Assembly (NCBI GenBank): GCA_003487955.1
Contig: DNNJ01000147.1
Location: 803 to 11,605 of the forward strand
Reading direction: 5' to 3'
DNA length: 10,803 bases
Source: Clostridiales bacterium
Lineage (GTDB): Bacteria > Bacillota > Clostridia > Tissierellales > Sedimentibacteraceae
The notes beneath the pieces are model-generated. The model was not told the origin of the DNA, did no database searches, and saw only the letters and a list, made by a program, of their open reading frames with translations. Shown here piece after piece: positions 1 to 8,999 of this stretch. Each line of letters starts with the position of its first letter. The stretch's first letter is position 1. Made by a program: the position numbers and the translations under genes.

Positions 1-86
1 GCACCCGCGAAGGGTGCGACATGCCAGAGACAAAGACCAATGGCAAAGGTCAAAATTTCAATCCACGCACCCGCGAAGGGTGCGAC
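1..86 (-). CRISPR. Leader-end of a type I-C CRISPR array (partial)
   Basis: A complete 32-bp repeat lies at 55-86 and the last 20 bp of a second, identical copy at 1-20. They flank a 34-nt spacer at 21-54. On the minus strand the repeat starts GTCGCACCC and ends GTGGATTGAAAT, the pattern typical of subtype I-C. It contains a perfect 7-bp stem (CGCACCC/GGGTGCG) around a 5-nt loop. Exactly 11 nt (TGGATTGAAAT) follow the stem, which fits Cas5c cutting at the stem base to leave an 11-nt 5' tag. The array is read on the minus strand, like the cas genes, so 21-54 is the leader-proximal and most recently acquired spacer. The array continues past the left edge; its length cannot be judged. Confidence 0.97.
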
Positions 87-254: not shown

Positions 255-548
255 TCATAGAATAAACACACCTTTATCAGGATTATAACTATTATCCTTG
301 CCAAGTGTCTCCACTCTTCTTTCCCAGTTCTTACCTAGTAAATAGAACCGAAGGCTATCCTTCTCACAATCGATTACATTTAATAGTTCATTCTTTATAG
401 TCACCAATTGTGCTGGGTTAATTGAACACTCAAATACAGAATTTTGAACTCTCTGGCCGTAATTTACACAAATTTTTGCAACTTGACGCAGTCTTCTTTT
501 TCCACCATCGCTTTCTGTATTTACGTCATATGTAATCAAAACTAACAC
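255..548 (-). CDS. cas2: Cas2, CRISPR adaptation nuclease-fold protein (type I-C)
   Basis: The 97-aa product is the usual size for subtype I-C Cas2. It opens with the ferredoxin-like first strand MLVLITYDV, whose Asp8 is the conserved family acidic residue. RVQNSVFEC follows at about residues 33-41, then the C-terminal region around LRFYLLGKNW. Cas2 dimers bridge two Cas1 dimers in the integrase that inserts spacers at the leader end. The start is GTG at 546-548, placed 7 nt after AAGGAG. An ATG offset by two bases (548-550) is closer to that site, but it reads into a stop after two codons and cannot be used. A 26-nt gap separates the gene from cas1, and the CRISPR leader follows directly. 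Confidence 0.96.
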   Translation of the reverse strand: MLVLITYDVNTESDGGKRRLRQVAKICVNYGQRVQNSVFECSINPAQLVTIKNELLNVIDCEKDSLRFYLLGKNWERRVETLGKDNSYNPDKGVFIL

Positions 549-574
549 ATCAACTCTCCTTATAAGTCAAAATA

Positions 575-1606
575 TTATGAAACAAAGAATGGAGGGTAGG
601 CTTCTATATCACCTCTTATATATCTAGCCATAAGGCATGCCTGAACATATGGTATTAAGCCAAATTCTATTCTTTCATGAATAAAAGGATGTTCAATAAT
701 ATCTTGCTTTCTTTTTTGCCATGAAGATAAAAATGTTCTTTTTGTTTCATCTTTCATTAATATTCCACCATTTTCTTTTGGAACAAATCCGTCTTCATTT
801 ATTTGTCTTCTATTAATTAGCGATAGAACAAATCTATCTGCCACATATGATCTCAATTCTTCGATCATATCTAATGCTAAACTAACTCGTCCCGGTCTAT
901 CTGTATGAAAAAATCCAACATATGGATCTAATCCTACTGTTTCTAATGCACTTGACATTTCATATGTAATTAATGTATAAGCATAAGAAAGTAACGCATT
1001 CAAGTTGTCACGAGGAGGTCTTCTTGATCTCTCTTTAAAAAAGAAGACTTCTTTTTGATGTAAAATCAATTCATTTATTCCTTGAAAGTATGCTCTTGAA
1101 ACCTCTCCCTCTATACCACGGAGTTCATCACTTGAGCAGCAATTCATGATTTTGTTTATTGAATTACTCATCTTTTCTTGTATTTCCAATAATAAATCAT
1201 TATTTACAACATTGTTATGATCGCGCAAAGCTCTATTAAGAACTTTTCTTCCGTTAACAACCTTTCCTATAATAAAATTTCGGGAAATATCAAGCGATTT
1301 TTCATCATCATCAGCAATTCTGTATTGTGTCCTGCGAAGTAATACATTACCATTGACTTCACCTTGAACTCTACCAAGAAAGTTACCATATTGACTTAAA
1401 AAACTTACTGTAACACCATGTTGACCACATAATTTCATTAAGGCAGGACTCATGCCATTGAAGTTAAAGCATACTACTCCTTCTAGTATGTGAATTGGTC
1501 TCCTGCCTATTTCTTCATCATCAATCTTCACCACAATATTTTCTCCATCTTTAGACAAATATGCATTTGGATTAGTGATATACAATGTATTAAGCAATTT
1601 TCTCAT
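575..1606 (-). CDS. cas1: Cas1, CRISPR spacer integrase (type I-C)
   Basis: The 343-aa product is full length for subtype I-C Cas1. Its N-terminal beta domain (about 1-90, with LEGVVCFNFNGMSPALMKLC) is followed by the alpha-helical catalytic domain. The metal-binding residues are all present: Glu166 in GIEGEVSRAYF, His234 in GLDPYVGFFH, and Asp246 in LALDMIEELR. Cas1 catalyses the transesterifications that insert prespacers into the first repeat, with Cas2 as bridge and Cas4 as PAM-selecting partner. ATG at 1604-1606 is one base after the cas4 stop (TGA-A-ATG) and 6 nt after GAGG, so translation is probably coupled to cas4. No truncation or missing residue is seen. Confidence 0.98.
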   Translation of the reverse strand: MRKLLNTLYITNPNAYLSKDGENIVVKIDDEEIGRRPIHILEGVVCFNFNGMSPALMKLCGQHGVTVSFLSQYGNFLGRVQGEVNGNVLLRRTQYRIADDDEKSLDISRNFIIGKVVNGRKVLNRALRDHNNVVNNDLLLEIQEKMSNSINKIMNCCSSDELRGIEGEVSRAYFQGINELILHQKEVFFFKERSRRPPRDNLNALLSYAYTLITYEMSSALETVGLDPYVGFFHTDRPGRVSLALDMIEELRSYVADRFVLSLINRRQINEDGFVPKENGGILMKDETKRTFLSSWQKRKQDIIEHPFIHERIEFGLIPYVQACLMARYIRGDIEAYPPFFVS

Positions 1607-1607
1607 T

Positions 1608-2279
1608 TCATACCTCTTTTATATTTGTATATCTTTCAATATAGTTTAAAATATTAACTTTCTTTTTCGTGAGTCTTGGCATACATATATCGTATAAAGA
1701 GCACAGTTTACAATTTTTATATGATTCTGCTTCAGGAGTAATTCCGGTTTCATATATCCTATGCATTTCACGAGCAACATTTTTAGCTTGCTTTCTTAAC
1801 TCATCAGTTATTTCGACCTTCGTTCTTCTATTTGTTTCGTGATAATATAGGTCAGATGACTTAAACACATAACCGAACATTTCTTCCAAGCAAATAACTT
1901 GTGCAGTTAATTGCATTATATCTCTTTTATCTTTCTTAGGCTTACCCCTTTTGTATTCTACGATATTTGGAAGCCACAAACCGTCTCTATTCGCTACCTT
2001 AATTCCTGCTTTATTTTGAGTATACTCTAAAACATCGACAATACCAGACAATCCTAATTCTTTAGATGAAATTGGGACAGCCCTTGATATAAACAAATCC
2101 TTTCTTGATTCTATAATAAACGGATCATCCGCTTTTTCATGTATATAATTCCCTTCCATAGTTGCTTTATTATCAGCCCATTGTTGTTCAATATGAATTA
2201 ATGCCCATTGCCTTTTACAAAAGTAAAAATGTTGTATACCAGATAACATTAAATAATCATCTTCATTATAGTCCATCAT
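1608..2279 (-). CDS. cas4: Cas4, Fe-S exonuclease that trims prespacers
   Basis: The 223-aa product is a RecB-family nuclease of the Cas4 (DUF83) type. Four cysteines that would hold the [4Fe-4S] cluster are present: Cys21 in YFCKRQW, and Cys190, Cys193 and Cys199 near the C terminus. Catalytic-site candidates are His47 (EGNYIHEKA), Asp82 (GIVDVLE) and Glu108/Lys110 (VEYKRG), the classic RecB D-ExK arrangement. In I-C systems Cas4 works with Cas1-Cas2 to cut prespacers at the PAM and set their orientation. The first ATG overlaps the end of cas7 by 14 nt and lies 9 nt after GGAAG. A second ATG follows immediately (Met2) and could serve equally well. Confidence 0.96.
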   Translation of the reverse strand: MMDYNEDDYLMLSGIQHFYFCKRQWALIHIEQQWADNKATMEGNYIHEKADDPFIIESRKDLFISRAVPISSKELGLSGIVDVLEYTQNKAGIKVANRDGLWLPNIVEYKRGKPKKDKRDIMQLTAQVICLEEMFGYVFKSSDLYYHETNRRTKVEITDELRKQAKNVAREMHRIYETGITPEAESYKNCKLCSLYDICMPRLTKKKVNILNYIERYTNIKEV

Positions 2280-3505: not shown

Positions 3506-5011
3506 ACCTAATTCCTCCTTATTTCTTTTATCTTTATAATATTTGTATTTAATTAATGCACATGTATTTGTCAATACTCTCTGCCAATTATACCCGGACA
3601 TTGCCATTGGTCTACTTGCATTTAACACTGCCGCATGGACAATATCATAAGGAATTTTTCTGCCATCGATAATACAAGGTAATAATCTTTCTACTGTGTT
3701 TCGAATAAGTTTACTATTTGCAGTAAATTCGATTTTTTGAAATTTATTTTTTTGCTCTGTTCCATAAGCAGCTAAGGCTATCTCCCTCGGTGAAGGGACT
3801 CCAACAAAATAATAACCTCCTTCATCATTTTTATAATAGTGTTTCCAACTGCAATGAAGGTGCCAATCTTTTATCCTTTCAAGGAACTCGGAACCATTTA
3901 ATTCCTTGTAATATGTAATTGATAATCTACCTGTTGTAGCTGCATCAACTGAGATAATTGCAATTTTCGTCTTTGTAGTTAAATCAGCTTTATAACCTGC
4001 TATAGCCCTATTCAATCTATCCGCGTAACTTTTTGCTGTATCTGCTTCTTTCTTTATTTCCTCTTGGAAAAATGTATCTTCAGTATTTTCAAGTGGCATA
4101 GGTATTTTAACACCATTTGCGGCCCAAGCAACTATAGCCGCTCCATCTCTTTTATATCCTTGTTTCTGTATCAACCATCTAAGTGTATTATGTGCTTTTT
4201 GAGATGTTTCATATCCAACAGAAGCTGCTTGTGTGCTCTCGGTAAACCTGCCCCTAAATGTAAATCCGTCTTTATCGTTTGCCGAAATTAGTTTAGACTT
4301 ATCGCCTGAGTGTCTTATTTTAGAAGGATGCTTGTCCGAACAATAAACATTTTTACCTGTAATGTAACAAATATCTTTATCTACATTAATGCTTTCATAA
4401 TAATTAATAAAGCTGTCATACAATTTATTGTCTAGCCAAACTCTGCCTTCATCCTTATTATCAATGCAGTTTTGTACGATAAACCTTACAAAGCAATCTG
4501 TTTGATTAATCCCTTGTATTTTATTAATCTTACTTGAAAGTATTCCATCATCATCAAGATCCAAAATCTTCTCATTTACTAAATCATTAATAAGTTGTCC
4601 TTTTTTTAAATATTCAAGAATAGCAATTACCTTCTTATGGGGATATTGTGAATTACACCAGCTTTCCAATTGGTTCAAGTATTTATTATAATACTCATCC
4701 TTGTTTTTATCATTGGTGAAATGTGAGTAGTCTCCTGCAATATAGCATAGTTTATCGCATAAGGGATGTGGAAATATACCATTGCCGCGTGCCCCTGAGT
4801 CTTCAGTCACAGGAATTATTGTTACTGCATTTTCTTTATCAGTAATTTTTTCTGCTCTTAAAAATTCTCCATATTCATCTATAGTTACTTCAATCTGAGC
4901 ATTCTGAGTAGAGTGAGATATAGGAAGAAGAACTGTATCATCTTTATCTATCTTACCCGCAAAACTTGAATTATTTTCATAAGTTTCATTTAGTAAGCTA
5001 ATCCACCCCAT
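3113..5011 (-). CDS. cas8c: Cas8c (Csd1), large Cascade subunit
   Basis: The 632-aa product matches the subtype I-C large subunit. In Cascade this protein sits at the crRNA 5' end, recognises the PAM and recruits Cas3. Visible family features are the start MGWISLLNETYENN, the block GARGNGIFPHPLCDKL (about residues 73-88), and GVPSPREIALAAYG in the middle third. The helical C-terminal part (from residue 503) is also produced separately as the small subunit. ATG 5009-5011 is preferred: AAGGTGG lies about 8 nt upstream and the N terminus agrees with the family. An upstream in-frame start would add nine residues from inside cas5. The gene overlaps cas5c by 14 nt and cas7c by 8 nt. Confidence 0.95.
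   Translation of the reverse strand: MGWISLLNETYENNSSFAGKIDKDDTVLLPISHSTQNAQIEVTIDEYGEFLRAEKITDKENAVTIIPVTEDSGARGNGIFPHPLCDKLCYIAGDYSHFTNDKNKDEYYNKYLNQLESWCNSQYPHKKVIAILEYLKKGQLINDLVNEKILDLDDDGILSSKINKIQGINQTDCFVRFIVQNCIDNKDEGRVWLDNKLYDSFINYYESINVDKDICYITGKNVYCSDKHPSKIRHSGDKSKLISANDKDGFTFRGRFTESTQAASVGYETSQKAHNTLRWLIQKQGYKRDGAAIVAWAANGVKIPMPLENTEDTFFQEEIKKEADTAKSYADRLNRAIAGYKADLTTKTKIAIISVDAATTGRLSITYYKELNGSEFLERIKDWHLHCSWKHYYKNDEGGYYFVGVPSPREIALAAYGTEQKNKFQKIEFTANSKLIRNTVERLLPCIIDGRKIPYDIVHAAVLNASRPMAMSGYNWQRVLTNTCALIKYKYYKDKRNKEELGMTLSVENKDRSYLFGRLLAVADRVEFLTFEKGEKRETNAKRYMNIFSKRPAKTWEIIYKNILPYMNKLKPGQKIKYDTMISEIGAMLDLEGFNNDALTELYLLGYYSQSDFMKDKKTNNIIDEMEEEKNE
3514..3520 (-). promoter_or_regulatory. 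Internal ribosome binding site for Cas11c
   Basis: The minus-strand sequence AAGGAGG is a full match to the anti-Shine-Dalgarno core and lies 8 nt before an in-frame ATG within cas8c. It encodes Lys-Glu-Glu (in KRNKEELGM) in the Cas8c frame, a choice of codons compatible with both jobs. Confidence 0.88.
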
Positions 5012-5732
5012 CAAAAACACCACCTTCCTCAAACTCACCTATAACAGTGAAATTACTATCATCAAAAGTCTTCATATTCATTTCCCTTAGCCTTCTATGT
5101 ATAGAACATTCTTCCGGTCTAATAAATTGAATGTAGCCGTTTACCATTTTAGGCATCCAAAATCTAGCTGTCATTTTATCTTTAGTTTCGTCATTATAAG
5201 CTTCATCCGGGTATGTCATTCCATGAAACATAAGACTAAAATCCATATCTGTGTCATCATAATAACCTTCGCCTTCACCAAACTTACAAGGTTCAACATA
5301 TCCTTGACATTCTCTTGTACCTAAAAAAATGTCTCTTCTTCCCCCTCTTGACAACATTCTTTTTGCAACAATATAATGTTTATTCTCGTTTCTATCTCTT
5401 TCCAAATCTTTACGGTTTTCATTCCATTCAAAGTGTGCTCTAACCTGATATTCTACATCCTTTAAATATGTATAAATAGATAAATCATTACCTCCTGTGT
5501 ACTTTATTGGACGTATTCCTTGAGATTGAGTTTGAATGCGGTTTATTATTCTCACATCATCAATAAACCATTGTAGAGTAGGTTTCCAATATACACTTTC
5601 CGTTATTCCTTTTAAGGCTTGATAGGTCGGCACTTGATATGTGAATTTTTCCCCTCCAATCCTGGTTAATGGGTCTGTAAACAACGCATATCTGCCATAC
5701 ACTTTAAACTCAATCAGGTTTTTTCTTTTCAT
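4998..5732 (-). CDS. cas5c: Cas5c (Cas5d), crRNA-processing endoribonuclease and Cascade subunit
   Basis: The 244-aa product is a typical Cas5d. Subtype I-C lacks Cas6, so this protein cuts the pre-crRNA at the base of the repeat hairpin and stays bound to the 11-nt 5' tag. From my recall of the Bacillus halodurans Cas5d sequence, its catalytic Tyr46, Lys116 and His117 correspond here to Tyr48 (SVYWKPT), Lys118 and His119 (NENKHYIV). Other signature stretches are VYGRYALFTDP (11-21), GGEKFTYQVPTYQALKG (26-42) and GGRRDIFLGTRECQGYVEPC (130-149). ATG 5730-5732 lies 7 nt after a perfect AAGGAGG, and the gene begins 19 nt after cas3 ends. The protein is predicted to process both ordinary crRNAs and the crRNA-like RNA upstream of cas3. 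Confidence 0.97.
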   Translation of the reverse strand: MKRKNLIEFKVYGRYALFTDPLTRIGGEKFTYQVPTYQALKGITESVYWKPTLQWFIDDVRIINRIQTQSQGIRPIKYTGGNDLSIYTYLKDVEYQVRAHFEWNENRKDLERDRNENKHYIVAKRMLSRGGRRDIFLGTRECQGYVEPCKFGEGEGYYDDTDMDFSLMFHGMTYPDEAYNDETKDKMTARFWMPKMVNGYIQFIRPEECSIHRRLREMNMKTFDDSNFTVIGEFEEGGVFDGVD

Positions 5733-5751: not shown

Positions 5752-8142
5752 TTACATAATTAAATCTTCCATCTCATCACTGACACCAATTACTTCATCA
5801 TAAAATCCTTCTCTAAGAATGAGAACATTCCCGTCTAAAACAGAATCATCAATTGCATTTCTTGCTTTAAGTTTCTCAATCATCATATCATTATTATACA
5901 TATTTACTGTATACCTTTGCATTTTTTTTAGCTCTCTTTTTATTTCTATAAAGTCATTACTTTCTCTAATTATACCAATATACTCCTTTCCATTTTTATA
6001 TGGAATTAAAATACCTATAGTATTACTATCAATAACTTCAAATTCTTGTCCTGCATACCCAAAAGCTTGTTTCAATATAATAGGAATTGACTCACCATTT
6101 CTCTCTTGATATGCTAAACTTCCAACAGGATTTTTGTCCAATAGATCTAAAATAGTTGTATTACTATCCTTAATTGTATAATCCATCTCATCTTTTCGAT
6201 TATAAAAGTATATTTCATAAAACAAGTTAATCATTTTAGGAGACAATAAATCATATTTCGCATAAATTGAATCGTTTTCTATTTTATCAAATATTTTTTG
6301 AGTTGCCCTCTGTGCCTCTTTAATATCTTTTAGTTTAGATACATTTTCATCCCTATAATTAATAACAAATACATTACCCATTTCAAGTTCTCCATTTCGG
6401 TTGCATCTTCCGGCTGCCTGTGCAATATTATCTAACCCTGCCAATGAACGAATCACACATTGAAATGAAATGTCAACGCCTGCTTCAATTAGTTGTGTAC
6501 TTATACAAATTACCTTTTGCCTGCCTAATTCCTTTTTTAAATCTTCAATTATATTACTCCTATGCTCCGCACACATATATGTTGTTAATTGAACAAGTTT
6601 AATATCAAGATTATTAAGTTTTAGAACTTCCTTTAATTTTATATGTAGATTTTTAACAGCTGTCTTTGTATTTAAAATAATTAGACAACTACCAACACTA
6701 TCCATTTTTGACATTACGAACTTAGCAAGTTCATCCGTATTATATCCACCTTGTACTATTGAATTAATTATAGATGTTCTTTTAAAATCTATAAATTGCT
6801 GCTCAATATTCTTTGTGATATTTACAGGTTGTCCATATAAAATATTTTTGTTAACTTCTCCAAGCAAAGGTTGTGTAGCTGAACATAATATTATTGTAGT
6901 ATTACATATCCGTGATAGAAAGTTCATCATTAAGTTGAAAATGCTTACACATTTTATAGGTAATGATTGTATTTCGTCAATTATTATTACAGAGTTTGCT
7001 AATTGATTCATTCTTCTAATGCTTTGCATCCTACCAGAAAACAATACTTCTAAAAATTGAACCATTGTTGTAAGTATTATTGGGCTGTCCCATGTTTCCC
7101 TTAAATATCTATATTCATTATCTGCATCATCTATAATAATATTCGAATGATGCTCCAAAATATAATCATCTGAACCTAAAGCTTTCCTGTATTCGTTAGC
7201 ATTTTGCTCTAAAATTGACAAATACGGGGCAACATAAATAATCCTATTTTTCAAATTTACCTTTGCATGCTCAATTGCATATCTTAATCCACTAAGCGTC
7301 TTGCCGCCGCCAGTAGGTATAGGAAGGCAATATATTCCTCCCGAATTCTTCCCAAATTCGTAGCATTCATCAGAAATGCTTTTTCTTAATAAAGATATCT
7401 TATTATCAATTTTAAAACCGTTAATATGATTGTTTAAGTTCAATTGCATTTTCTCCCAGATTTCATGTAATTCATTATCATCAATACTATGTGTAATAAT
7501 TCGCTCATTCATAAATTCAGAAGTATCTGACCAATCAGAATCAACAAGAATTGATAAAATCATTCTTTCAAAACAACTTAACAAAAAAAACGAGCAATTG
7601 TTGTCGTTCATATCAGCTGTGATACTGTTTTTAATTTTAATAAAAATTTCTTTAGATTCTTTAAAGGATTTTTCAAATAATTTTTCTAAATTATTTGTTT
7701 TTAATATAGTATTTATGCAATTACTTAGTACTTCTTCATAATGTATTTCAAATGTTTTGTTTGTTCTGCGTGTGAAATTATTTATACCATTAATATTAAT
7801 GCAATCAAATAATCCGTGATGAGATGCTATTGCTATAGAGATTAACTGGGCAGTTATTCTTTGAATTTGATTGCCATTATAATAATTATCAAATATATAC
7901 TTACCTCCAGCTGTTGAATGATCAATCTCTCCTTTATGTACGGATAATGGGTCTTCAACTGCTTTTCTTATATATACTTCATAAGCTTGCGAACCTTTTC
8001 CTAAATCATGCAATAAACCTGTCAAATATAACAAGTTTTCTAATCCAATATACTTTCCTTTATTTTTAGCTTTATTAGCTACACCAAATAAGTGTTCTAA
8101 TATGGTTTGTTCTTCCTTATTTGCGTTTATATGAGCAATCAT
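5752..8142 (-). CDS. cas3: Cas3, HD nuclease-helicase (type I-C)
   Basis: The 796-aa product has an N-terminal HD nuclease followed by a superfamily 2 helicase. HD residues visible are His17 (EHLFGVA), His45-Asp46 (LLHDLGKG), His75 (IDHSTAGG) and His108-His109 (IASHHGL). Helicase motifs are Walker A PTGGGKT (276-282), DEIQ (389-392), SAT (421-423), motif V around STQLIEAGVD (548-557), and motif VI QAAGRCNRNG (575-584). Cas3 is recruited by Cascade after full R-loop formation and degrades the displaced strand. I chose ATG 8140-8142: GGAGG is 4 nt upstream and the protein begins MIAHINANKEEQTILEHLFG. A TTG 63 nt upstream is in frame, but it lies inside the -35 box of the predicted operon promoter and has no ribosome site. 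It is the first gene of the cas operon. Confidence 0.97.
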   Translation of the reverse strand: MIAHINANKEEQTILEHLFGVANKAKNKGKYIGLENLLYLTGLLHDLGKGSQAYEVYIRKAVEDPLSVHKGEIDHSTAGGKYIFDNYYNGNQIQRITAQLISIAIASHHGLFDCININGINNFTRRTNKTFEIHYEEVLSNCINTILKTNNLEKLFEKSFKESKEIFIKIKNSITADMNDNNCSFFLLSCFERMILSILVDSDWSDTSEFMNERIITHSIDDNELHEIWEKMQLNLNNHINGFKIDNKISLLRKSISDECYEFGKNSGGIYCLPIPTGGGKTLSGLRYAIEHAKVNLKNRIIYVAPYLSILEQNANEYRKALGSDDYILEHHSNIIIDDADNEYRYLRETWDSPIILTTMVQFLEVLFSGRMQSIRRMNQLANSVIIIDEIQSLPIKCVSIFNLMMNFLSRICNTTIILCSATQPLLGEVNKNILYGQPVNITKNIEQQFIDFKRTSIINSIVQGGYNTDELAKFVMSKMDSVGSCLIILNTKTAVKNLHIKLKEVLKLNNLDIKLVQLTTYMCAEHRSNIIEDLKKELGRQKVICISTQLIEAGVDISFQCVIRSLAGLDNIAQAAGRCNRNGELEMGNVFVINYRDENVSKLKDIKEAQRATQKIFDKIENDSIYAKYDLLSPKMINLFYEIYFYNRKDEMDYTIKDSNTTILDLLDKNPVGSLAYQERNGESIPIILKQAFGYAGQEFEVIDSNTIGILIPYKNGKEYIGIIRESNDFIEIKRELKKMQRYTVNMYNNDMMIEKLKARNAIDDSVLDGNVLILREGFYDEVIGVSDEMEDLIM

Positions 8143-8176
8143 TATTCCTCCACTTATTACAGTATCTGGTGACTTA

Positions 8177-8205
8177 ATATTAACATGTTTGTTTTTACCT
8201 GTCAA
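8177..8205 (-). promoter_or_regulatory. Promoter of the cas operon
   Basis: On the minus strand a perfect TTGACA (8200-8205) is followed by a 17-bp spacer and TAATAT (8177-8182). TGT lies directly before the -10, giving an extended -10. Transcription would start near 8170, leaving a leader of about 28 nt with the cas3 ribosome site. No promoter of similar quality was noticed between the cas genes, so this one probably drives all seven. The PAM of the predicted Cascade target lies only 8 bp upstream of the -35. Confidence 0.75.
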
Positions 8206-8213
8206 TGATTTTT

Positions 8214-8232
8214 TTCGATAATATTAATTTAT
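8214..8232 (+). promoter_or_regulatory. Predicted Cascade target (PAM plus partial protospacer) upstream of cas3
   Basis: TTC at 8214-8216 is the canonical I-C PAM. The next 16 bases (8217-8232) equal the first 16 bases of the guide in the neighbouring crRNA-like RNA (8319-8334), except for one T/C difference at position 12. Similarity stops after position 16, so only a partial R-loop would form: enough to bind, not enough for Cas3 cleavage. The site sits between the cas promoter (-35 ends at 8205) and the divergent RNA promoter (-35 starts at 8255). A bound Cascade could therefore hinder both. Confidence 0.75.
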
Positions 8233-8254
8233 ATATCCCAGGAAATATCTCTAC

Positions 8255-8283
8255 TTGACTTTAGTTTCAATTTATAATAAGAT
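8255..8283 (+). promoter_or_regulatory. Promoter of the crRNA-like RNA
   Basis: TTGACT (8255-8260), a 17-bp spacer and TAAGAT (8278-8283) lie on the plus strand. A perfect TATAAT overlaps at 8273-8278 but has no good -35 at normal spacing. Either -10 puts the start at about 8285-8290, exactly where the degenerate repeat begins. Confidence 0.6.
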
Positions 8284-8288
8284 AAGTT

Positions 8289-8371
8289 GTCAGAAGTTAT
8301 TTCTCTGTGGATTGAAAAGATAATATTAACTTATGAAAACGAGTACTTTTAACTCGTTTTTTGCTTTTTTT
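8289..8371 (+). ncRNA. Putative crRNA-like cas regulator (CreR/CreA-type guide RNA)
   Basis: The RNA begins with a degenerate CRISPR repeat (8289-8318): GT, a stem CAGA/TCTG with a 9-nt loop, then TGGATTGAAAA. The last element equals the 11-nt crRNA tag of the array repeat except for its final base. As in the true repeat, the stem closes with C-G directly before the tag, so Cas5c could cut after 8307. The guide starts at 8319 (GATAATATTAACTTAT), and the transcript ends in a hairpin and T-run (8336-8371). There is no second repeat; the terminator hairpin appears to supply the 3' end. The guide matches 8217-8232 next to a TTC PAM, in exact register with the tag. RNAs of this kind, which direct Cascade to cas or toxin promoters with partial pairing, are known for other subtypes. 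The assignment here is inference from sequence. Confidence 0.78.
8336..8371 (+). terminator. Bidirectional rho-independent terminator
   Basis: AAAACGAGT (8336-8344) and ACTCGTTTT (8352-8360) form a perfect 9-bp stem around a 7-nt loop. On the plus strand a long T-rich tail follows (TTTTTT at 8357-8362, then GC, then seven T). On the minus strand only four T within the stem follow. The hairpin is therefore a strong terminator for the plus-strand RNA and a weaker one for the acetyltransferase gene that ends at 8379. Confidence 0.85.
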
Positions 8372-8378
8372 AGATTTA

Positions 8379-8951
8379 TTAAATGAACGACTCCTGTGTT
8401 TTCTTTCCCATATCGTACCCTAACTCATAATAATGATTATTATTAAAATCAAATGTCTTTATTACCTCAAGTCCAAGCTTATCTACATGGGCACGGTATG
8501 ACCTACCGTTTATTTTGTTTATAAATGTTATTAAAATCGGGTATCTGTCTTTCATCTGTAGTCTTGAAAATTCGAAAAGGTTTGGTAATACTTCAGTGCT
8601 GCGATATTTCTTGTCAATGCATATGGGACCGTACTGATAGGAATTTTCTGTTGACAAAACTTGACCAAGATATAGGTTGTTAGGTAAGTCATTTATCATA
8701 TATTGGAAAAGCGGCCAAGCTGACCAATACTGCCATGATGCTGCCATGGCATAAGCAATAACTTTGTCACCATCGCAAGCGATGGCAAGCCCGTTTTCTT
8801 TTTCTATCAGTTCTTTAAACTGGTCTTCAGTAAATAATGTTGTAACAAATCCATCCGGTTTATCTTCTTCTGATATAGTAGATATATGATATTTTTTCTG
8901 AATTTGTGAAACTCCGTAAATGTCTTTAAAAGTTGCATTTCTATATTCCAT
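8379..8951 (-). CDS. GNAT-like acetyltransferase of unknown substrate
   Basis: The 190-aa product resembles stand-alone GNAT N-acetyltransferases, which move an acetyl group from acetyl-CoA to an amine. It opens with MEYRNATFKDIYGVSQIQ, has a central strand LAIACDGDKVIAYAMAASW (55-73), then YGPICIDKKYR (107-117), and ends with RYPILITFINKINGRSYRAH (136-155) and KLGLEVI. The motif A region reads YRSTEVLPNLF, where an acetyl-CoA-binding GNAT normally has a glycine-rich R-G-x-G turn. The turn is therefore degenerate and activity is uncertain. ATG 8949-8951 is chosen because AAGGAG lies 8 nt upstream; an upstream in-frame start has no such site. The gene lies upstream of the cas operon on the same strand, but a terminator separates them and no CRISPR role is indicated. 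Confidence 0.72.
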   Translation of the reverse strand: MEYRNATFKDIYGVSQIQKKYHISTISEEDKPDGFVTTLFTEDQFKELIEKENGLAIACDGDKVIAYAMAASWQYWSAWPLFQYMINDLPNNLYLGQVLSTENSYQYGPICIDKKYRSTEVLPNLFEFSRLQMKDRYPILITFINKINGRSYRAHVDKLGLEVIKTFDFNNNHYYELGYDMGKKTQESFI

Positions 8952-8999
8952 AATTATTACTCCTTCATTTTTTATAGTAAGAAAGGAAATCGATACCAC

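What the first reader, a model, noticed from the sequence alone, without database searches (positions are those of the whole stretch)
8289..8371. crRNA-like RNA divergent from cas3 in a type I-C locus
A short predicted transcript upstream of cas3 carries GTGGATTGAAA (8307-8317), an 11-nt exact copy of the 3' part of this locus's own CRISPR repeat. GT and a stem-loop that closes with C-G directly before the tag sit upstream, as in the genuine repeat, although the stem sequence is unrelated. A promoter precedes it and a terminator follows after about one spacer length. It has one degenerate repeat and no second one. Cascade-guiding regulators of this design (CreA, CreR) are known from other subtypes. 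I do not know of a described I-C example, so this may be a new member in which Cas5c, not Cas6, would process the RNA.
Basis: partly seen in the sequence, partly recalled or inferred. Interest (0 to 1): 0.95.

Follow-up and report, generated by a model that had tools for sequence, protein, structure and literature searches.

The report
Self-regulating guide RNA of type I-C CRISPR
In front of its CRISPR-Cas genes this bacterium carries a single worn CRISPR unit whose guide part matches the control region of those same genes, so the immune complex is predicted to turn down its own production; comparable guide-and-target pairs sit in 47 of 200 related gene sets examined.

Summary
The tag is real: GTGGATTGAAA at 8307-8317 (+) copies the 3' part of the locus's own repeat (0.01 expected per window). 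The guide after the handle (8319-8334) matches 8217-8232, just upstream of the predicted cas3 -35 box, at 15 of 16 bases, beside TTC (8214-8216), a known I-C PAM. The one mismatch is at guide position 12, one of the every-sixth bases that type I Cascade does not read. With exact letters the site occurs once in the 3.2-Mb assembly. Of 200 I-C loci, 47 carry a standalone tag (at most 1 mismatch) with a TTC-flanked target near cas3 or cas5c matching at least 13 of 15 readable positions; eight scrambled tags gave none at that stringency. Swapped guides gave 0 of 1920. Mismatches pile up at positions 6 and 12 even when targets are chosen without that rule. Guides and targets change together among relatives. 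This works like CreR, in a I-C form absent from the review passages I read (I-B, I-E, V-A named). The main 2023 survey was not held, so I-C may already be listed there. Transcription, Cas5c processing and repression are predicted, not shown.

The parts
8285..8367 (+). predicted creR RNA gene (transcript ends are estimates)
8273..8278 (+). possible -10 box of creR (TATAAT); alternative TTGACT 8255-8260 / TAAGAT 8278-8283
   Evidence: consensus only, near chance level
8289..8307 (+). degenerate repeat stem: GT, CAGA, 9-nt loop, TCTG, closing C8291-G8307
8307..8317 (+). repeat tag GTGGATTGAAA; predicted Cas5c cut after G8307 leaves handle 8308-8318
   Evidence: cut site recalled from Cas5d work
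8319..8334 (+). guide, positions 1-16, pairing with the target except at position 12
8335..8371 (+). intrinsic terminator (stem 8335-8361, then T run)
8214..8216 (+). TTC, PAM of the target
   Evidence: TTC as a I-C PAM in PMC8406640 passages
8217..8232 (+). target matched by the guide; a full-length protospacer would run to about 8250
8177..8205 (-). predicted cas3 promoter: TTGACA 8205-8200, TAATAT 8182-8177 (10 of 12, TG before the -10)
5752..8142 (-). cas3, first gene of the predicted operon
4998..5732 (-). cas5c, the predicted processing nuclease
   Evidence: TIGR01876, 251 bits
2266..5011 (-). cas8c (to 3113) and cas7, the rest of Cascade
255..2279 (-). cas4, cas1, cas2
1..86 (-). end of the CRISPR array; intact repeat at 55-86; more repeats lie beyond the window

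Best explanation
Bases 8285-8367 (+) are predicted to encode a small crRNA-like RNA (a type I-C CreR) whose guide, matching 15 of 16 bases beside a TTC motif at 8214-8232 in front of cas3, would likely lead the cell's own I-C Cascade to that site and repress the cas3-cas5c-cas8c-cas7 operon without cutting it. Predicted steps: (1) transcription divergent from cas3, ending at the terminator 8335-8361; (2) Cas5c cuts after G8307, leaving an 11-nt handle; (3) Cascade assembles on this RNA; (4) it binds the target, whose PAM lies 8 bp from the predicted cas3 -35 box, and hinders RNA polymerase; (5) pairing stops after about 16 nt, too short for Cas3 cutting; (6) when array crRNAs or phage inhibitors draw Cascade away, the operon is released. 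Shown by sequence: tag, stem, terminator, guide-target match, PAM, conservation and co-change. Steps 1-6 are inferred.
For: Window: 15 of 16 guide bases matched beside TTC; with exact letters at the read positions the site is the only one in the 3,209,725-base assembly; 0 of 30000 random regions reached its score, 2 came within one. Family: 38 of 45 divergent tags have a TTC target with at least 13 of 15 readable positions, swapped guides 0 of 1920; 47 of 200 loci with at most one tag mismatch, 0 for 8 scrambled tags at that stringency. Reading rule, chosen without favouring it: of 39 targets picked on all of positions 1-16, mismatches are 26 at position 6, 26 at 12 and 0-3 at each other position; without any PAM demand 36 of 39 best sites have TTC; ignoring every sixth base gives 38 of 45 loci, other phases 16-22. 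Co-change: in eight related loci 1 of 40320 pairings, the true one, reaches the observed match. The guide-target match is short of the 27 bp needed for I-C interference in Xanthomonas (PMC8406640 passages). A solitary I-C repeat RNA, RacrIC1, inhibits a I-C system (PMC10651486 passages).
Against: No expression data. The creR promoter is near chance level (19 of 47 relatives score at least 9 against 13% of shuffles). The window's stem is short and not the favoured free fold. The target lies upstream of the predicted -35 rather than over the promoter core, so the strength and even the sign of regulation are open; for L059 and L099, which share this placing, ranks other promoters first. With two mismatches allowed, 7 genome sites match the target pattern against 11 for the reversed control, one of them with a single mismatch on C300, so exclusivity rests on exact letters. 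7 of 45 divergent tags lack a full target, among them the same-genus relative L034 (12 of 15). 153 of 200 loci showed no such element, 18 of the 200 having under 250 nt upstream.
Confidence: 0.85

Rival explanations
1. Same RNA and same target, but Cascade bound upstream of the -35 would activate cas3, or act on creR's own promoter, rather than repress cas3.
For: In the window and L040, L059, L066, L099 the predicted -35 starts 11-13 nt past the first target base, on the far side of the PAM, a place where class I activators can sit (recalled).
Against: In many other loci the target covers the predicted -35 or -10, which fits blocking; CreR and CreA are described as repressors (passages).
Confidence: 0.08
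2. A CreTA-type addiction module: the RNA is an antitoxin that keeps a toxin gene silent through Cascade.
For: Same kind of RNA; CreA also has a worn repeat, TTC and a 1-5, 7-11 seed (PMC8501985 passages).
Against: The only exact-letter target in the assembly is in front of cas3; no open reading frame of 80 aa or more starts between creR and cas3 apart from the long start of cas3 itself. A small RNA toxin or shorter frame was not searched for. Across the family the targets lie in front of cas3 or cas5c.
Confidence: 0.03
3. A decayed leftover repeat or mini-array without function.
For: Only one degenerate repeat; the stem is short.
Against: Matched, TTC-flanked targets in 47 of 200 loci, co-change of guide and target and a reading rule that drift would not make.
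Confidence: 0.03
4. A phage-type RNA anti-CRISPR (Racr) that only sequesters Cas5c or Cascade.
For: A solitary I-C repeat RNA of phage origin inhibits a I-C system (PMC10651486 passages).
Against: The element recurs beside cas genes with a matched target; neighbours here include MOSC and MoaC proteins, which are not phage genes.
Confidence: 0.01

Closest known systems
CreR, cas-regulating RNA (Liu et al. 2023; seen only through passages of reviews PMC13131331, PMC12737573, PMC12948488)
   Same: crRNA-like RNA in the cas locus, partial match to its own cas promoter, no toxin found
   Different: described in the passage seen for I-B, I-E and V-A; here I-C, where Cas5c and not Cas6 processes; pairing runs over 1-5, 7-11 and 13-16
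CreA of CreTA modules (PMC8501985, PMC9458426; passages)
   Same: one worn repeat plus terminator (H. hispanica form), TTC, free positions in the seed
   Different: CreA represses a toxin RNA; here the target is in front of cas3; pairing is longer than 1-11
Standalone-repeat elements of Shmakov et al. 2023 (recalled; PMC10450183 not held)
   Same: computed standalone repeats with guides against cas promoters, mostly in type I (recalled)
   Different: cannot say whether I-C loci of this kind are listed there
RacrIC1 (PMC10651486, passages)
   Same: single I-C repeat unit acting on a I-C system
   Different: phage-borne inhibitor next to AcrIC5, not known as a promoter-targeting guide
tracr-L of type II-A (PMC8616872 passage on Workman 2021)
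   Same: natural short-match guide that makes the effector repress its own cas promoter; 11-nt match, no cutting
   Different: Cas9 and a tracrRNA form, no repeat-handle crRNA

Membership tests
CreR | crRNA-like unit with a repeat derivative inside the cas locus | tested here: met
CreR | partial, PAM-flanked complementarity to its own cas promoter region | tested here: met
   promoter predicted by consensus only
CreR | guide and target conserved together in relatives | tested here: met
   47 of 200 loci; co-change
CreR | no toxin gene under its control | tested here: inconclusive
   only exact-letter target is in front of cas3; no 80-aa frame in the gap; small RNA toxins not testable
CreR | RNA is made and loaded into the Cas effector | not testable with these tools
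   needs RNA and pull-down data
CreR | represses cas transcription; relieved by crRNA competition or Acr proteins | not testable with these tools
   needs reporter or mutant
CreTA | target in the promoter of a toxin gene | tested here: not met
   target lies in front of cas3
Racr | encoded by a virus or prophage | tested here: inconclusive
   flanked by cas3 and by an unassigned protein, then MOSC and MoaC; no prophage search was made
Type I-C CRISPR-Cas | cas3-cas5c-cas8c-cas7-cas4-cas1-cas2 with GTGGATTGAAAT repeats | tested here: met

The most novel reading that the evidence does not exclude
Type I-C systems across Clostridia carry one-repeat guide RNAs that turn Cascade into the regulator of its own operon, and in the window's class Cascade parked between two divergent -35 boxes is an RNA-guided switch that sets both cas3 and creR output and may even activate cas3: a natural CRISPR activation or bistable circuit.
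Probability: 0.12. Interest if true: 0.88.

Novelty: new variant of a known kind. Interest (0 to 1): 0.68.

Why it matters
I-C is one of the commonest type I subtypes and has no Cas6. An autoregulatory guide processed by Cas5c would extend cas self-control to it and supply dozens of natural guide-operator pairs. Their mismatch pattern (positions 6, 12 and 18 free, the rest of 1-16 kept) is an evolutionary record of how I-C Cascade reads DNA and of how much pairing selection keeps for binding. It makes a direct test possible of whether crRNA load and anti-CRISPR proteins raise I-C expression, and it offers natural repressor guides for I-C tools.

Tried and rejected
Rejected as main reading: CreTA, Racr, decayed repeat (see rivals). 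That the terminator sets the end of pairing: correlation 0.11 over 31 loci. That guide and target resemble each other through plain duplication: this would not put mismatches at every sixth base or end at position 16-17.

Led nowhere: Rfam search of 8100-8450 gave two matches far below the families' gathering scores. The viral-contig scan with the Cas5c alignment found no relative. Ten plasmid-borne I-C loci (Monoglobus, Paenibacillus, Lysinibacillus, Lacticaseibacillus, Thermus, Nitratidesulfovibrio, Zymomonas, Tistrella, Leptolinea, Rhizobium) gave no element; cas gene limits in the distant ones are rough. Two other exact tags in the assembly: C2:2942 (no target for its guide with up to 2 mismatches) and C329:28 (a stem precedes it, but no TTC site scored above 8 of 14 in the first 3 kb of that contig, sites in the assembly with 2 mismatches equal the control (3 against 4), and a neighbouring 572-aa frame ending in a YPNPSKG-type tail suggests to me a contig of another organism).

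Fetched but not put in the 200: L037 to L039. Two pairs look like the same contig by length (L081/L217, L117/L204; none a hit). Guides fall into 37 non-redundant groups among 50 compared. In one search the 42 best sites include L076, whose CAC site is a repeat next to its own guide and no target. Not done: whole-genome search in other phyla, structure prediction, prophage search.

Full report
Observation. The tag GTGGATTGAAA stands at 8307-8317 (+); its only other copy in the window is in the repeat at 55-86 (-), and 0.01 copies are expected. In the assembly it occurs 11 times: 8 in the array of this contig, once here, once on C2 and once on C329. Upstream lie GT and a 4-bp stem closing C-G on the first G of the tag; downstream a terminator at 8335-8361. 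The locus is a complete I-C system on the minus strand, so the element diverges from cas3.

The target. Reading on from the handle (8308-8318), guide 8319-8334 matches 8217-8232 at 15 of 16 bases, with TTC at 8214-8216. The single mismatch is at position 12. In type I effectors every sixth guide base is flipped out and does not pair (recalled); work on CreA found positions 1-5 and 7-11 critical (PMC8501985 passages). With exact letters at the read positions this PAM-target pattern occurs once in 3,209,725 bases (assembly 79.66% complete); with up to two mismatches 7 sites match, against 11 for the reversed control. In 30000 first-order random regions modelled on 8121-8290, none reached the observed 14 of 15 readable positions and 2 reached 13. 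The predicted cas3 promoter (TTGACA 8205-8200, TAATAT 8182-8177) begins 8 bp beyond the PAM.

Relatives. 200 I-C loci were examined: the window, 3 relatives, 80 from named genome contigs, 26 from the order, 40 from the class, 40 from the phylum and 10 plasmids. In the first 150, 53 tag copies lie upstream of cas3 or between cas3 and cas5c: 6 are an array (L041), 2 point with the operon (L091, L236), 45 diverge from it. Of these 45, 38 have a TTC-flanked target with at least 13 of the 15 readable positions in the first 18; guides swapped among loci gave 0 of 1920. The 7 that fail are L034, L036, L076, L112, L159, L163 and L167. L159 and L163 have TTT and L167 TAC beside a site with 13-14 of 15; L036 matches at 1-5 and 7-11 beside TTC but little further; L112 has CTC and 11 of 15; L034 has TTC and 12 of 15 at the usual place; L076 has no convincing site. 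A scan of all 200 with up to 3 tag mismatches and at least 13 of 15 gave 49 hits in 48 loci (34 exact, 13 with one, 2 with two mismatches) against 0, 0, 2, 1, 0, 3, 0, 0 hits for 8 scrambled tags, all of those with 2 or 3 mismatches. By set, loci with a hit of at most 1 mismatch: 2 of 4, 18 of 80, 12 of 26, 11 of 40, 4 of 40, 0 of 10. Of these 47, two (L236, L283) point with the operon. 18 of the 200 loci hold under 250 nt upstream.

The reading rule. My first scoring ignored every sixth base, which could favour the pattern, so I repeated it without that rule. Of the 45 tags, 39 have a TTC site matching at least 12 of positions 1-16; mismatches are 26 at position 6, 26 at 12, 0-3 at each other position from 1 to 16, then 14 at 17 and 29 at 18. 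Without any PAM demand, 39 have a site with at least 13 of 16, and it is flanked by TTC in 36, TTT in 2, TAC in 1. Ignoring every sixth base lets 38 of 45 loci pass 13 of 15; ignoring any other phase, 16 to 22. From 19 to 30 the mismatch level is random-like, 25-37 of 42. Pairing therefore covers 1-5, 7-11 and 13-16. Its end does not follow the terminator's position, so I infer that Cascade sets it.

Co-change. In eight related loci guide and target carry the same substitutions at positions 2, 3, 4, 7, 9, 10, 11 and 14; positions 13, 15 and 16 have some breaks. Own pairs match at 13.1 of 14 readable positions on average, crossed pairs at 9.0, and of 40320 assignments only the true one reaches the total.

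Anatomy of the family. A stem of 4 or more pairs closes on the first G of the tag in 35 of 47 (29% in shuffles), preceded by GT or AT in 28 of the 35. A terminator-like structure follows in 30 of 47 (14% in shuffles; 31 of 47 with a longer stretch). An array could be read in 34 of the 49 hits; the 11-nt tag equals the array's in 25, the twelfth base too in 15; for L069 and L239 the script read the array in a shifted frame, and in L239 tag and array in fact share the variant GTGGATAGAAAT. Target placing varies: just upstream of a predicted -35 (window, L040, L059, L066, L099), over the -35 (for example L067, L116), over the -10 (for example L158, L161, L168) or just after it (for example L150, L205). 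All rest on consensus promoters; for L059 and L099 prefers other promoters.

Mechanism and limits. The best reading is negative feedback: free Cascade loads this RNA, sits at the cas3 promoter and lowers its own supply; array crRNAs or phage inhibitors relieve it, as review passages describe for CreR (PMC12737573; PMC13131331). A 16-nt match is short of the 27 bp needed for I-C interference in Xanthomonas (PMC8406640 passages). That a solitary I-C repeat RNA can act on a I-C system is known from RacrIC1 (PMC10651486 passages). Cas5c would cut before U8308 (cut site recalled; a 5' handle held by Cas5c is described in PMC7684278 passages). Nothing here shows expression, processing or repression, and the site's place upstream of the -35 leaves the sign open.

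Novelty. A review passage lists CreR for I-B, I-E and V-A (PMC13131331); another says type I and V-A without naming I-C (PMC12737573). The literature searches showed no I-C CreR in the titles and abstract starts listed. Shmakov 2023 (PMC10450183) is not held and Liu 2023 appeared only as a cited reference, so a I-C entry in their tables cannot be excluded. I rate it a new variant: the principle is known, the I-C form with Cas5c and its 16-nt pairing I did not find described.

Noticed in passing
L238 (unnamed class genome): Two candidate units in one locus: one between cas3 and cas5c with a 15 of 15 target, one upstream of cas3 with a 2-mismatch tag and a 14 of 15 target.
   Followed up: no
window 8318 and relatives: The base after the tag is T in the arrays read with this tag, but among 47 standalone units it is T 25, A 16, C 3, G 2, N 1; the window has A. 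Cause unknown.
   Followed up: partly
window 8379-8954 (-): A 191-aa protein convergent with creR has no Pfam or NCBIfam hit at 1e-3.
   Followed up: no
G000:C318 (L032, L039): A second, distant Cas3-like match (29% identity) in the same assembly, perhaps another CRISPR type.
   Followed up: no
L034 (same genus, G016:C80): The nearest relative keeps tag and terminator-like sequence between cas3 and cas5c, but its best TTC site at the usual distance matches only 12 of 15.
   Followed up: partly
G000:C329:28-38 (L329, L339): Another exact tag, preceded by a stem, at the edge of a contig that may belong to another organism; no target found.
   Followed up: partly
G000:C300:13181-13199 (L333): A site one mismatch away from the PAM-target pattern of this guide; the reversed control gives as many loose matches.
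   Followed up: partly
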